A stretch of DNA of 33,738 nt from NCBI GenBank assembly GCA_903905685.1, contig CAIVHI010000451.1:1-33738 (forward strand). The letters are read 5' to 3'. Position 1 is the first letter of the stretch; each line of letters opens with the position of its first letter. Below are positions 1,654-18,091 of the stretch, piece by piece. This stretch comes from an uncultured Bacteroidota bacterium. GTDB taxonomy: Bacteria; Bacteroidota; Bacteroidia; Chitinophagales; Chitinophagaceae. A program made the translations under genes and the position numbers. The notes beneath the pieces are model-generated. The model did no database searches, was not told where the DNA came from, and worked only from the letters and a program-made list of their open reading frames with translations.

Positions 1654-2649
1654 ATGAGCGAAAAATTGAAACGGATAGACAAGCCCTACGTGCTGTCGGA
1701 CAGCAGTGTAAATGAATACGGTTTCCGCCTGCTCACCAGCGGGTGCCAGCTCGAAGAATTTAGGAAGAACCCTATAGGTTACTACATGCACCGCCGCGAC
1801 GAGGGCATAGCCCTACGGTGGGACGACTTGAAGATTGAGGGCGACCAATTGGTGGGCACACCGGTCATCAACCTGGCGCACAGCAGAGGGGAGCAGTTGG
1901 TGGGCGAGGCCGAGAACGGTTTCCTGAATGCGGCATCGGTGGGGCACATTGTGGTGCTGGAGCACAGCACCGACCCTGCGTTGATGCTGCCGGGGCAAGT
2001 TGGGCCCACCATAACCAAGTGGTATTGCAAGGAATGCAGCCTGGTAGACATTCCCGGCAACAGCAATGCCTTGGCGCAACTGTATGATGTGCAGGAACAT
2101 GTGCTGAATTTGGCGGGTACCGGCGCAAGCGTGGTGCGTGGCATGGTGGCAGCCCTACCCGCAGCACTGCGCGATGCCTTGCAACTGCCCGAGACCGCCA
2201 CCGAGCAACAGGCCGCAGCGGCCGTGCAAAGCTTGGCCGGCAAGGTGCTGGTGCTGGACGAAGAGAACAAGACCATCAGGGCGGAGCGCACGGCGTTGCA
2301 ACTCCAACTGGACCAACACCGGGAACTGCGCGACAAAGCCGAGGCGGCAGCCTTGCTGGAGCGCGCCTTGGAAGACAAGAAAATAACCGTAGCCCTACGG
2401 GAACGGTTGGCGGCAGATTATGCCGGAAATACGGCGGCCCTTCGCGCCCTGCTGGAGGTGCTGCCGGCCTACCGATCTATAGCCGAGCAACTGAAGAACA
2501 GTCGGCAGGCGGCCGATGAAGGTTGCCTCACCTGGGACGACTATGAAAAGAGCGACCCCACGGGCAAGAAACTGAAAGACCTGCGCGCCAACGACCCCGC
2601 CAAGTACAAGGCGTTGTTCGAATTGAAGTTTGGCGCAAGCGAACAGTAG
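1654..2649 (+). CDS. Phage prohead protease (Mu gpI-like) with C-terminal coiled-coil/scaffold-like region
   Basis: ATG at 1654 in frame with ORF 1570..2649; N-terminal part (YMHRRDEGIALRWDDLKIEGDQLVGTPVINLAHS...SLVDIPGNSNALA) is protease-like; C-terminal coiled coil; sits directly upstream of the capsid gene. Confidence 0.7.
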   Translation: MSEKLKRIDKPYVLSDSSVNEYGFRLLTSGCQLEEFRKNPIGYYMHRRDEGIALRWDDLKIEGDQLVGTPVINLAHSRGEQLVGEAENGFLNAASVGHIVVLEHSTDPALMLPGQVGPTITKWYCKECSLVDIPGNSNALAQLYDVQEHVLNLAGTGASVVRGMVAALPAALRDALQLPETATEQQAAAAVQSLAGKVLVLDEENKTIRAERTALQLQLDQHRELRDKAEAAALLERALEDKKITVALRERLAADYAGNTAALRALLEVLPAYRSIAEQLKNSRQAADEGCLTWDDYEKSDPTGKKLKDLRANDPAKYKALFELKFGASEQ

Positions 2650-2709
2650 GCCGATGCCGGCCTGCCTCCCACCAAGAGTTTTCATTCCAAAAATCAAAAT
2701 CCCAAACCC

Positions 2710-3624
2710 ATGGCAATCCAAAGAGAGATATGGCAGGACCATATCGAGGGGAACCTGTTCAAGAACAACGAGTTCCTGTTGGCATCTACCGATGCGTCGC
2801 AATTCGTGCTGCAAGGCAAGGTGGTACACATTCCGCAGGCGGGCGCGCTGCCCAATGTGGCAGTGAACCGGAGCAGCGTACCGGCAACGGTGGTGCAACG
2901 CGGCGACACCGACATCACGTATTCGCTCGATGAGTATTCCACCGACCCCATCCTCATTCCCAACATCGAGAACTTCGAGTTGAGCTACAGCAAGCGGGAG
3001 AGCGTGCTGGGCGAGCATGAAGCCTCGCTGAGGCAGGCCATAGCCGACACGCTGTTGGTGAAGTGGGCGCCAACCGGCGATTCCGGATTGGTGCTCCGCA
3101 CGGCAGGTGCATCTACGGCGACACATCTTGACGGCACTACGGGCAACCGCAAGAAATTCACGATTCAAGACCTGAAGAATGCGCAAAACCGCATGAACAA
3201 GCAAAACGTGCCTATGGAGAGCCGCTATGCCCTGATGAGCTCGGACATGCTGCAACAGCTTACCGACGACATGAGTGCCACCCAATATCGCGACTTCAGT
3301 GCGGCATTTGACGCCAAGGACGGCGTATTGGGCAAGTTGTTCGGGTTCAACATCATGATGCGCAGTGCGGTGTTGAGCTACGACAATGGGCTGAGTCCGG
3401 CGGTGAAGGCTGCGGGCATGACGGCGGCTGCAACCGACAATGACGGCGTATTGTGCTGGCAAACCGGATTTGTGGAGCGCGCCATTGGGCAAATCAACTT
3501 TTTCGAGAAGATTGGTGACCCCACCTATTACGGCGACGTGTATAGCGTAAGTGTGCGGATGGGCGGCCGCATGCGTAGGGCAGACGCGAAAGGCGTGATT
3601 GCCATTGTGCAAGCGGCAGCCTAA
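2710..3624 (+). CDS. Phage major capsid protein
   Basis: 304 aa; MAIQREIWQDHIEGNLFKNNEFLLAS...FELSYSKRESVLGEHEASLRQAIADTLLVKWAP; typical Bacteroidetes phage capsid; follows the protease. Confidence 0.75.
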   Translation: MAIQREIWQDHIEGNLFKNNEFLLASTDASQFVLQGKVVHIPQAGALPNVAVNRSSVPATVVQRGDTDITYSLDEYSTDPILIPNIENFELSYSKRESVLGEHEASLRQAIADTLLVKWAPTGDSGLVLRTAGASTATHLDGTTGNRKKFTIQDLKNAQNRMNKQNVPMESRYALMSSDMLQQLTDDMSATQYRDFSAAFDAKDGVLGKLFGFNIMMRSAVLSYDNGLSPAVKAAGMTAAATDNDGVLCWQTGFVERAIGQINFFEKIGDPTYYGDVYSVSVRMGGRMRRADAKGVIAIVQAAA

Positions 3625-3699
3625 GCTTGGCACCAACCTTGCCGGCCAACAGTCCTCAAAACCTATCAACCCCTACAAAGGCAGTTACTGCCGAAACCT

Positions 3700-3975
3700 A
3701 TGGAAAGCAATTTGAAGATTTGGCTGTTGGCCGGTATGGTTGGCGCCATGGCCACCGTGCTCGGGTTCCTCATCAAGGTAGTGACCGGAGAAGTCATCAA
3801 GCGACTGGACGAAATCGTATCGGAGCTCAAACAATTGACCTGCACCACAACTATACACGGGCAGGAAATAAGGGTGCTGCACGAACAAGATGCGACAGTG
3901 CGCGAGCAACTGCGAGACATGGCCGAGCGGATACGGATTTTGGAAAGAAACATCAGCACCACCCTAAAAACATGA
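3700..3975 (+). CDS. Small single-TM, coiled-coil phage protein (holin-like)
   Basis: N-terminal TM WLLAGMVGAMATVLGFLIKVV then heptad-rich KRLDEIVSELKQL...LRDMAERIRILERN; close to a lysin gene. Confidence 0.5.
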   Translation: MESNLKIWLLAGMVGAMATVLGFLIKVVTGEVIKRLDEIVSELKQLTCTTTIHGQEIRVLHEQDATVREQLRDMAERIRILERNISTTLKT

Positions 3976-3978
3976 ACT

Positions 3979-16370: not shown

Positions 16371-16405
16371 TTAGCAGGCAATGGCAATTTGCCTCAAGTA
16401 TTTTT

Positions 16406-16413
16406 CAAAGGTA
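16406..16413 (-). promoter_or_regulatory. Bacteroidetes -7 box TACCTTTG (TAnnTTTG) upstream of the inverted membrane-protein gene
   Basis: CAAAGGTA on + strand, 36 bp upstream of the 16370 start; no clear -33 TTG found. Confidence 0.4.
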
Positions 16414-16476
16414 GAAATATAATCTCTTACGTTCGTTAAAAAAAATTCAAAAACCCTTGATGCTAATTTGTAGGAT

Positions 16477-17568
16477 ATGAAGAAGGATATCATAATTAAC
16501 GAATTGATAATACGGTCGGCAGACCGGGGCCGCAAAGATATAGCCAGTTGGCGCAATGCACTGAAGAGTGCAGAGTCGGTCTACTACCCCAACCGAAGCA
16601 GGCTGTATGACCTCTATGAAGACATCCTGCCCGACGGGCACTTGTCGGGCATCATTGGGAAGCGCATAGATGCGGTGTTGAACAAGCCGTTGTATTTTGA
16701 GAGTGACGGTAAAAAGCGGCCCGAGTTGGACGACCTTATGGCGACTGCGGGGTTTAGAAAGGTAGTGAGGACCATCATGGAGACCGTATTTTGGGGATTG
16801 TCGGGGTTGGAGTTTGTGCCCGGCAACAGTATGGAAGTGAATGTGCTTCCCCGCAAGCACATCAAGCCCGACTTGGGGATACTGGCGTTTGAACAAAACG
16901 GTACATCGGGAATGGCCTATCAGGACCTTGACAACGTCTGGATTATGGGCGACCCCGGCGACTTGGGGATCCTACTGAAGTGTGCACCCTACTGTTTGTA
17001 CAAAAGGGCGAGCATGGCCGACTGGGCACAATACATCGAGTTGTTTGGGCAGCCGGTCAAAATCATCAAGTACGACTCTTACGACGACCAAACGAAGGCC
17101 GAGCTGAAAAAGATACTCGATGAAAGCGGCAGCTCTCTGTCTATGATGATACCCAAGCAAGCCGACTTCGAGATGAAGGATGGCAAGCAGAACAACGGAG
17201 ATGGCAATTTGCAATTATCGTTTATCAAGGCCATGAACGAAGAGTTGTCCATCACCGTGCTTGGCAATACGGAGACCACGACGAGTGCCTACAGTACCGG
17301 CTATGCGCAAAGCAAGGTGCACCTGCAACAGCAGTTCGAAATTACGAAGAGCGACTTGGTTTATACGGCAGGGATGCTGAACCAGCCCAAATTCCTCAGC
17401 GTATTGGAGGCTTATGGATATCCCGTTGGCGGTGGACGATTTGTATTTTCGAAGGATACCGACATCGACTACTTGAAAGCCCGCATCGCCATAGATGCCG
17501 AAATCAACAAGATCGTGCCGTTGGGCCGTCAATATTGGCTGGACACCTACGGCATATGCGCAGAATAA
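16477..17568 (+). CDS. Phage portal protein (Mu gp29 / DUF935-like)
   Basis: DGHLSGIIGKRIDAVLNKPLYFES...ETVFWGLSGLEFV...LGNTETTTSAYSTGYAQSKVHLQQQFEI. Confidence 0.75.
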   Translation: MKKDIIINELIIRSADRGRKDIASWRNALKSAESVYYPNRSRLYDLYEDILPDGHLSGIIGKRIDAVLNKPLYFESDGKKRPELDDLMATAGFRKVVRTIMETVFWGLSGLEFVPGNSMEVNVLPRKHIKPDLGILAFEQNGTSGMAYQDLDNVWIMGDPGDLGILLKCAPYCLYKRASMADWAQYIELFGQPVKIIKYDSYDDQTKAELKKILDESGSSLSMMIPKQADFEMKDGKQNNGDGNLQLSFIKAMNEELSITVLGNTETTTSAYSTGYAQSKVHLQQQFEITKSDLVYTAGMLNQPKFLSVLEAYGYPVGGGRFVFSKDTDIDYLKARIAIDAEINKIVPLGRQYWLDTYGICAE

Positions 17569-17611
17569 ACCTCCAGATAAGACCACTTCAACCAGACCCC
17601 AACATACCGCT

Positions 17612-18091
17612 ATGGAATCCATTTTTGCAAGCATGCTGCTTCAAGTCACTGCCCGCTTGGGTGGTGAATTTGGCAATAAAGTACATATTGCCTTTGCGGG
17701 AGGGCGTGGCCGCCCGCAGATGGGCGTACCCGAAATAACCATTGAATTCGATGAATTCCGCTTCGAGAGTTTGGCAGGTGGGGTACAGATGGGTGCCGGC
17801 ACATTGGTAGTGCGGTTGTTGTTTGCCGCCTTCAGTTCGCCGGCGGCTGCCACCCCAGAACCCTACCGCCGAAAGGCACTTGCCTATTGCGAAATCGAGA
17901 GCAAACTACACGGAATCCTCCAAGGGTTCCAGCCCCATGCATCGGCAGGAGGTTTGGACCGCATTTCTGCACGCGGCAAGTACCAGCCCGATGGCCGCGT
18001 GGAGCGGGAAATTCGATACAGCGTCACCTTTACAGACTCGACGGCTACCGAAGGCAAGACTTGGAAGCGCGTGAAGGCCGCAATGAGGTGA
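17612..18091 (+). CDS. gp37-like head-tail / tail-terminator candidate
   Basis: ATG 17612 in frame with ORF 17495..18091; size and position directly after the portal. Confidence 0.45.
   Translation: MESIFASMLLQVTARLGGEFGNKVHIAFAGGRGRPQMGVPEITIEFDEFRFESLAGGVQMGAGTLVVRLLFAAFSSPAAATPEPYRRKALAYCEIESKLHGILQGFQPHASAGGLDRISARGKYQPDGRVEREIRYSVTFTDSTATEGKTWKRVKAAMR

What the first reader, a model, noticed from the sequence alone, without database searches (positions are those of the whole stretch)
1654..18091. Candidate gene-transfer-agent-like (domesticated) contractile phage cluster in a Bacteroidetes chromosome
Seen: about 22 same-strand genes for head (protease, capsid, portal, TerL, gp36/gp37-like), lysis (holin-like, CHAP) and contractile tail (sheath, tube, chaperone, hub, spike, gp25/gpX/gpJ/gpI-like, fibre) in ~16.4 kb, with intact ORFs. 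No integrase, transposase, repressor, replication, recombination or recognisable TerS gene. Known: RcGTA-type elements are ~15 kb structural clusters lacking such genes and sitting between host genes. Inference: retention of packaging plus tail genes without mobility genes suggests a domesticated particle. I do not know of a characterised GTA of this type in Bacteroidetes, but novelty was not checked. Alternatives: a recently defective prophage, or a phage whose early genes lie elsewhere.
Basis: partly seen in the sequence, partly recalled or inferred. Interest (0 to 1): 0.85.

Follow-up and report, generated by a model that had tools for sequence, protein, structure and literature searches.

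The report
Domesticated Mu-like phage, probable gene-transfer agent
A family of freshwater and soil Bacteroidota appears to have tamed an ancient Mu-like virus: its capsid, packaging and contractile-tail genes are now scattered host genes kept intact by selection and inherited with the chromosome, which points to a previously undescribed gene-transfer particle.

Summary
In detail: 1654-18091 encodes an intact contractile-tailed, Mu-like head, packaging, lysis and tail set with no mobility genes.

The same gene set occurs in all 4 sampled species of this genus, in 6/6 good-quality Flavipsychrobacter genomes (sheath) and in 24/25 of a third Chitinophagaceae genus (TerL). It is split into a head/tail module, a packaging/portal module and a repressor/MuB/Gam control locus, with up to 125 kb between the particle modules on one contig. 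The tail module abuts mreDCB-carB in nine genomes of two genera. Module trees match each other and the host CarB tree. Pairwise dN/dS is 0.00-0.17 for structural genes except the tape-measure candidate (0.42). MuA, MuF and gpG are gone; true Mu-like prophages in the family keep them. The window genome's 'missing' TerS sits alone beside dnaN; its repressor and MuB lie on a third contig.

Genes spread this far cannot be packaged together, so the particle cannot propagate itself; retained TerL, portal and capsid imply it still packages DNA. Best reading: a Mu-derived, contractile-tailed gene-transfer agent, independent of the three recognised GTA families. Domestication is well supported (about 0.93); DNA transfer is inferred (about 0.75). 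A cultured carrier exists: Flavipsychrobacter stenotrophus RB1R16.

The parts
1654..2649 (+). Head maturation protease, Mu I-like (module II start)
   Evidence: PF10123 1.5e-5, phrog_11321 7.6e-59; orthologue in all relatives
2710..3624 (+). Major capsid protein
   Evidence: phrog_267 1.7e-31; 68-79% identical in domesticated relatives
3700..3975 (+). Small membrane protein, lysis-region candidate (replaces ORF 3627-3989)
   Evidence: Position matches 80-92 aa gene conserved in relatives; weak phrog_13 spanin-like hit 0.0098
3979..4410 (+). Holin-like protein
   Evidence: phrog_2653 7.3e-6, unknown function; 39-51% orthologues; holin role inferred from position
4407..4931 (+). CHAP endolysin
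   Evidence: PF05257 1.9e-8, phrog_9589 1.1e-13
5005..6183 (+). Contractile tail sheath (annotated from 4924; likely start 5005)
   Evidence: DUF2586 1.1e-45, phrog_907 3.4e-33; start by comparison with 392-aa orthologues
6223..6654 (+). Tail tube
   Evidence: phrog_4579 3.1e-10; 57-85% orthologues
6690..7031 (+). Tail assembly chaperone candidate
   Evidence: phrog_19076 8e-11; position
7236..8222 (+). Short tape-measure candidate (328 aa), fast-evolving
   Evidence: Same position as TMP_3 protein in a related prophage; omega 0.42 in G001/G002
8257..8865 (+). Baseplate hub protein DUF6046
   Evidence: PF19512 1.1e-25, phrog_5233
8888..9895 (+). Baseplate hub
   Evidence: phrog_4930 3.6e-32
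9909..10457 (+). Spike candidate
   Evidence: Position; 26-38% orthologues
10492..10806 (+). gp25-like baseplate protein candidate
   Evidence: Position; 39-57% orthologues
10803..11030 (+). LysM-like gpX candidate
   Evidence: Position; 28-42% orthologues
11057..11908 (+). Baseplate gpJ-like protein
   Evidence: phrog_38413 7e-56 (unknown function); 42-61% orthologues
11961..12458 (+). gpI-like tail protein
   Evidence: 38-51% orthologues
12455..13321 (+). Tail fibre candidate (end of module II)
   Evidence: 29-50% orthologues; in sister genera this gene abuts mreD
13386..14882 (+). Terminase large subunit (module I)
   Evidence: phrog_38 1.5e-75; ATPase and nuclease motifs invariant
14973..15503 (+). 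Secreted protein with acidic tail, specific to the domesticated clade
   Evidence: 31 protein clusters only; absent from related phages
15548..15982 (+). Head-tail adaptor, Mu gp36
   Evidence: PF07030 5.4e-6, phrog_195
15999..16370 (-). Small membrane protein, antisense, conserved in the domesticated clade
   Evidence: Alignment A3 of 12 sequences; same place in relatives
16477..17568 (+). Portal, Mu type
   Evidence: PF06074 3.5e-61
17612..18091 (+). gp37-like protein (end of module I)
   Evidence: phrog_6911 3.2e-10; orthologues 30-38%

Best explanation
An ancient domesticated Mu-like contractile-tailed phage, vertically inherited in a clade of Chitinophagaceae, that most likely works as a gene-transfer agent. 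Shown: its genes form dispersed chromosomal loci (head/lysis/tail; TerS-TerL-adaptor-portal; repressor-MuB-DnaA-like-Gam) kept by purifying selection, with the transposase MuA lost. Inferred: an S24-type repressor holds the system off; when it is relieved, perhaps under stress or DNA damage, head, tail and terminase are made from the separate loci. With no linked genome to replicate, TerS/TerL package pieces of host chromosome by the headful. Gam (a DNA-end protector in Mu) and MuB may guard or present DNA. CHAP and holin lyse the producer and the contractile tail injects the DNA into a relative.
For: Present in 4/4 species of the genus, 6/6 good Flavipsychrobacter genomes and 24/25 of genus g122. 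Tail module at a fixed site next to mreDCB-carB in nine genomes of two genera; module I also at a shared site in G251, G329, G199. Loci far apart in single contigs: TerL and capsid 125 kb in G251, 86 kb in G329. Third control locus without MuA. MuA homologue in no carrier except those holding a separate prophage. Omega 0.00-0.17 for head, packaging and tail genes except the tape-measure candidate, 0.02-0.15 for control genes. TerL catalytic residues intact. Host and module trees share 8-9 of 12 splits, permutation maximum 4-5. Related phages keep gpG and MuF and a compact layout; domesticated loci do not. Genome-specific operator arrays shared by both modules in several genomes.
Against: No particle, packaged DNA or transfer has been seen. 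The operator array is not evident in the window, and shared operators may partly reflect a common ancestral intergenic region. Losses and decay occur: G096 has broken protease, sheath and portal; G125 lacks the mre-linked module; G117 lacks module I nearby and has a split hub. Most usable dN/dS values come from one species pair. The window genome is a MAG in 523 contigs, so its locus distances are unknown. In the window alone, modules I and II are contiguous (16.4 kb). A phage capsid 69% identical exists (L145), so phage relatives are not far off.
Confidence: 0.75

Rival explanations
1. Recently defective Mu-like prophage decaying in place in this genome.
For: No transposase, TerS or repressor within the window; some relatives show broken copies (G096).
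Against: Same set conserved in several genera at orthologous sites with omega 0.00-0.17 and intact ORFs; dispersed but complete complement including TerS elsewhere in the genome.
Confidence: 0.05
2. Domesticated for another use: a contractile weapon (tailocin-like) or a lysis or structural device, in which DNA packaging is incidental or lost.
For: Contractile tail, lysis genes and conserved fibre; a domesticated tail with no known transfer data.
Against: Capsid, protease, portal, adaptor and TerL are as constrained as the tail genes and TerL catalytic residues are invariant; a headless weapon would not need them.
Confidence: 0.12
3. An active Mu-like phage family with frequent recombination, seen as prophages in many genomes.
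For: Related Mu-like prophages do exist in the same family and even in the same genomes, one with a 69% identical capsid (L145); the G003/G125 element groups against the host tree.
Against: Particle modules up to 125 kb apart with host genes between, no MuA in most carriers, host-congruent trees and each locus keeping its own neighbours.
Confidence: 0.03
4. The particle serves a partner element (satellite or plasmid) rather than general chromosome transfer.
For: TerS is divergent and displaced in the window's genome, so its target sequence is unknown.
Against: No conserved partner element seen next to any of the loci; not tested genome-wide.
Confidence: 0.05

Closest known systems
RcGTA and Rhodogtaviriformidae (Alphaproteobacteria)
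   Same: Structural cluster lacking mobility genes, vertical inheritance, purifying selection, extra genes at other loci, TerS encoded apart (TerS in RcGTA: cited in PMC12946183; multiple loci: PMC11841831).
   Different: Different phage ancestry (Mu-type portal, protease, gp36, DUF2586 sheath); contractile rather than non-contractile tail; different phylum; S24 repressor, MuB and Gam retained.
BaGTA (Bartogtaviriformidae) and BhGTA/VSH-1 (Brachygtaviriformidae)
   Same: Independent domestication of a tailed phage; particles unable to carry all their own genes (PMC9662315).
   Different: Non-contractile tails where described (PMC9662315), other hosts, no Mu-type genes known to me.
Mu-like transposable phages of Bacteroidota (Flavobacterium lotta8/pippi8, Porphyromonas phage006a-015a, Elizabethkingia TCUEAP3)
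   Same: Homologous capsid (38-45%) and TerL (up to 48%) and ancestral divergent gene layout.
   Different: Related prophages carry MuA, MuF and gpG in one compact block of about 33-40 kb; here MuA, MuF and gpG are lost and modules are scattered.
Tailocins (R-type and relatives)
   Same: Domesticated contractile tail with lysis genes.
   Different: Head, portal and terminase genes are retained under selection here.

Membership tests
Gene-transfer agent (functional class) | Phage-derived structural and packaging genes | tested here: met
Gene-transfer agent (functional class) | Vertical inheritance with the host genome | tested here: met
   Fixed sites and congruent trees
Gene-transfer agent (functional class) | Maintained by purifying selection | tested here: met
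   Omega 0.00-0.17 except tape-measure candidate
Gene-transfer agent (functional class) | Particle cannot package all of its own genes | tested here: met
   Modules 86-125 kb apart in single contigs, against related phage genomes of about 33-40 kb; head capacity itself not measured; met in G251 and G329, not measurable in the window's MAG
Gene-transfer agent (functional class) | Packages and transfers general host DNA | not testable with these tools
   Needs particle purification and transfer assays
Rhodogtaviriformidae, Bartogtaviriformidae, Brachygtaviriformidae | Descent from the same domestication event (TerL phylogeny, host group) | tested here: inconclusive
   No direct TerL tree with RcGTA, BaGTA and BhGTA was run; nearest TerLs and capsids found are Mu-like Bacteroidota phages and the host phylum differs. 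Not filed as a member.
Mu-like transposable phage or prophage | MuA transposase linked to MuB | tested here: not met
   MuB locus without MuA; no MuA homologue in carriers lacking a separate prophage
Mu-like transposable phage or prophage | One contiguous genome able to replicate and be packaged | tested here: not met
   Dispersed loci
Mu-like transposable phage or prophage | Mu-type head and tail genes including MuF and gpG | tested here: not met
   Mu-type portal, protease and gp36 present, but MuF and gpG absent
Tailocin | Tail without head and packaging genes | tested here: not met
   Capsid, portal and TerL present and constrained
Defective prophage | Decay: pseudogenes, relaxed selection | tested here: not met
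   Window ORFs intact and omega low; decay seen only in some relatives such as G096

The most novel reading that the evidence does not exclude
A whole DNA-export apparatus was domesticated, not just a particle: the retained MuB ATPase, DnaA-like protein and Gam end-protector, uncoupled from the lost transposase, choose, present or protect chromosomal DNA for packaging. This would be a gene-transfer agent with its own DNA-handling module, widespread in Chitinophagaceae.
Probability: 0.35. Interest if true: 0.95.

Novelty: new variant of a known kind. Interest (0 to 1): 0.88.

Why it matters
The classification paper evaluates three independently exapted GTA groups, none in Bacteroidota and none described there with a contractile tail (PMC9662315); a 2026 survey of packaged gut DNA reports GTA-like activity in Bacillota families and lateral transduction, not GTAs, in Bacteroides (PMC12946183). 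This would be a further independent origin, from a transposable phage, in a major phylum, conserved across several genera and with a cultured carrier. It makes two open questions testable: how common GTAs are outside Alphaproteobacteria, and what selection keeps them. The clean loss of MuA, MuF and gpG with retention of MuB, Gam and the repressor shows which phage functions hosts keep.

Tried and rejected
Shared operators in the window itself: none convincing. G036 was dropped from the operator statistic because its two upstream regions overlap. A first capsid clade test was invalid because I had mislabelled G071, a distant capsid, as domesticated; repeated without it (clade not rejected, p-AU 0.36; with L145 included it is one branch, support 95/75). 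The gene I labelled 'DUF3164' in scripts and notes is a Mu Gam-like protein (PF07352). A structure model of the clade-specific secreted protein (pLDDT 71) matched nothing convincing in the PDB. Rfam search: no hits. Literature: no Bacteroidota or Chitinophagaceae GTA found; the library holds open-licence papers only, so absence is not proof. Pairwise dS is saturated for most pairs beyond G001/G002, so most omega values rest on that pair, with a few from G247/G326 at high dS. Tailocin and defective-prophage readings were considered and set aside on the constrained head and packaging genes.
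Full report
WHAT IS IN THE WINDOW. The window is one whole contig (C451) of a 523-contig, 93% complete MAG. Its relatives include Flavipsychrobacter stenotrophus, which places it in Chitinophagaceae, Bacteroidota. Positions 1654-18091 hold a full particle set: Mu I-like protease, capsid, lysis genes, sheath, tube, chaperone, a short tape-measure candidate, hub, baseplate and fibre genes (module II), followed by TerL, a secreted protein, Mu gp36, Mu portal and gp37 (module I).

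THE GENES ARE SHARED, BUT MOVED. All four species of the genus have TerL, sheath and capsid. In G002 the packaging module lies mid-contig among host genes and the head/tail module is on another contig with host genes before it; G001's copies lie on four small contigs. A family-wide scan found capsids of 68% identity or more in genera g1, g34, g86, g93, g103, g114, g117 and g122. Among good-quality genomes, 6/6 of g114 have the sheath and 24/25 of g122 have TerL (one of the 24, G125, only in a divergent version). The named-genome scan identifies G247 of g114 as the isolate Flavipsychrobacter stenotrophus RB1R16.

A FIXED CHROMOSOMAL ADDRESS. In five g122 and four g114 genomes the fibre gene ends next to mreD-mreC-mreB-carB; named loci L111 and L112 also show mreD next to the fibre. 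G096 and G120 show mreC and mreD with a block of polysaccharide genes between. Module I has its own address: in G251, G329 and G199 gp37 abuts the same UbiD-like decarboxylase gene. G125 shows the mre locus without the module and carries a different related element elsewhere. The window's genus has a different arrangement: both modules co-directional, next to a flippase gene.

THE SYSTEM IS SCATTERED. TerL and capsid lie 125 kb apart in G251 and 86 kb apart in G329, within single contigs. A third locus holds an S24-type repressor (68-77% identical across genera) divergent from a MuB-like ATPase, followed in most genomes by a DnaA-C-domain protein, a small protein and a Mu Gam-like protein. In a true prophage (G152_C132) MuA lies directly upstream of MuB; in the domesticated loci the repressor stands directly beside MuB and MuA is gone. 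In the window's own genome the repressor and MuB are at C499, and the TerS missing from the window stands alone beside dnaN at C299:12292-12750. Whether that genome keeps Gam was not determined.

TRUE PHAGES DIFFER CLEANLY. An HMM sweep of 141 loci separates two kinds. Related Mu-like phages and prophages typically have gp37-gpG-MuF-portal-gp36-TerL-TerS back to back with protease-capsid. The domesticated loci lack gpG and MuF and, where module I is visible, usually carry the clade-specific secreted protein and often the antisense membrane gene. That secreted protein has only 31 clusters in a search of 5.8 billion proteins. A MuA homologue was found in no carrier except three that hold a separate prophage. 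The IMG/VR contigs with close capsids (L185-L200) show no gpG or MuF either and look like the same chromosomal element (inference).

SELECTION. Between G001 and G002 (dS 0.2-0.6), omega is 0.00-0.17 for the head, packaging and tail genes that could be compared, with the tape-measure candidate at 0.42; control genes are 0.02-0.15. Between RB1R16 and G326, TerL is 0.042, protease 0.049, fibre 0.035 and repressor 0.021, with high dS, and many other genes saturated. TerL ATPase and nuclease residues are invariant.

VERTICAL INHERITANCE. The carriers form one clade in the CarB host tree, support 100/100 against four other family members. Trees from module I and module II recover the same genus groups. 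Shared splits are 9/12 (host-II), 8/12 (host-I) and 8/12 (I-II), against maxima of 4-5 in 10,000 label permutations. The exception is instructive: G003 and G125 carry a related element that pairs together against the host tree, and neither genome has a MuA match; it is treated as a separate element.

CO-REGULATION. Upstream of both particle modules there is a Bacteroidetes-like -7 element, and in several genomes an array of two or three half-sites 20-22 bp apart whose sequence is specific to the genome but shared by both modules (G194, G403, G247, G326; weaker in G295 and G120). Own-genome sharing of 9-mers (108 in 11 genomes) exceeds all 20,000 permutations (maximum 106). Common origin from one ancestral intergenic region may explain part of this; the turnover between lineages suggests a shared trans-acting factor, for which the small Mor-like gene near gp37 is a candidate (inference). 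The pattern is not visible in the window, where module I follows module II on the same strand.

HOW IT MOST LIKELY WORKS. Repression by the S24 repressor, release in some cells, synthesis of particles from separate loci, headful packaging of chromosomal DNA by TerS and TerL, lysis, injection by the contractile tail. The regulatory step rests on domain content and the injection step on homology. Packaging of general host DNA is inferred from a constrained packaging motor whose own genes lie too far apart to be packaged together. Retention of Gam, a DNA-end protector in Mu, is notable in a system that would handle linear DNA.

COMPARISON AND NOVELTY. [quoted passage not shown] Those features fit here. 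I do not file the element in any of the three recognised GTA families: its nearest relatives are Mu-like Bacteroidota phages and its hosts differ, although a joint TerL tree was not run. No Bacteroidota GTA was found in the literature available. Hence: works like a GTA, new origin, contractile and Mu-derived. Function remains to be shown by experiment.

Noticed in passing
L037 (G003:C398:12800-30100) and L098/L099 (G125:C41:72300-96900): A second, divergent element in two genomes that lack the main one. Modules are contiguous; in G125 repressor, Gam-like and Mor-like genes lie alongside. No MuA, MuF or gpG was recognised; it groups G003 with G125 against the host tree. Possibly an independent, less scattered domestication or a replacement.
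   Followed up: partly
L145 (uncultured Bacteroidetes bacterium KTt_bin-1606): A phage-like locus with gpG and MuF whose capsid is 69% identical to the window's; the same genome also holds the domesticated version (L116). Closest phage-like relative seen.
   Followed up: partly
L082 and L367 (G096:C3, Taibaiella MGR_bin411): Decaying copy: protease, sheath and portal are broken and most of the tail is missing; module I lies beside carB.
   Followed up: no
L030 (G002:C204:55557-56261) and L032 (G001:C42:1282-1986): A J-domain protein gene sits inside the tail module in two species, between gp25 and gpJ, with omega 0.27; other species have a small LysM-like gene there.
   Followed up: no
L069, L078, L086 (between modules I and II in Flavipsychrobacter-genus genomes): Very large secreted proteins (1368-1875 aa) occupy the space between the two modules in three genomes; role unknown.
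   Followed up: no
window 17495-18091: The alternative start at 17495 would overlap the portal reading frame; 17612 is the more likely gp37 start.
   Followed up: no
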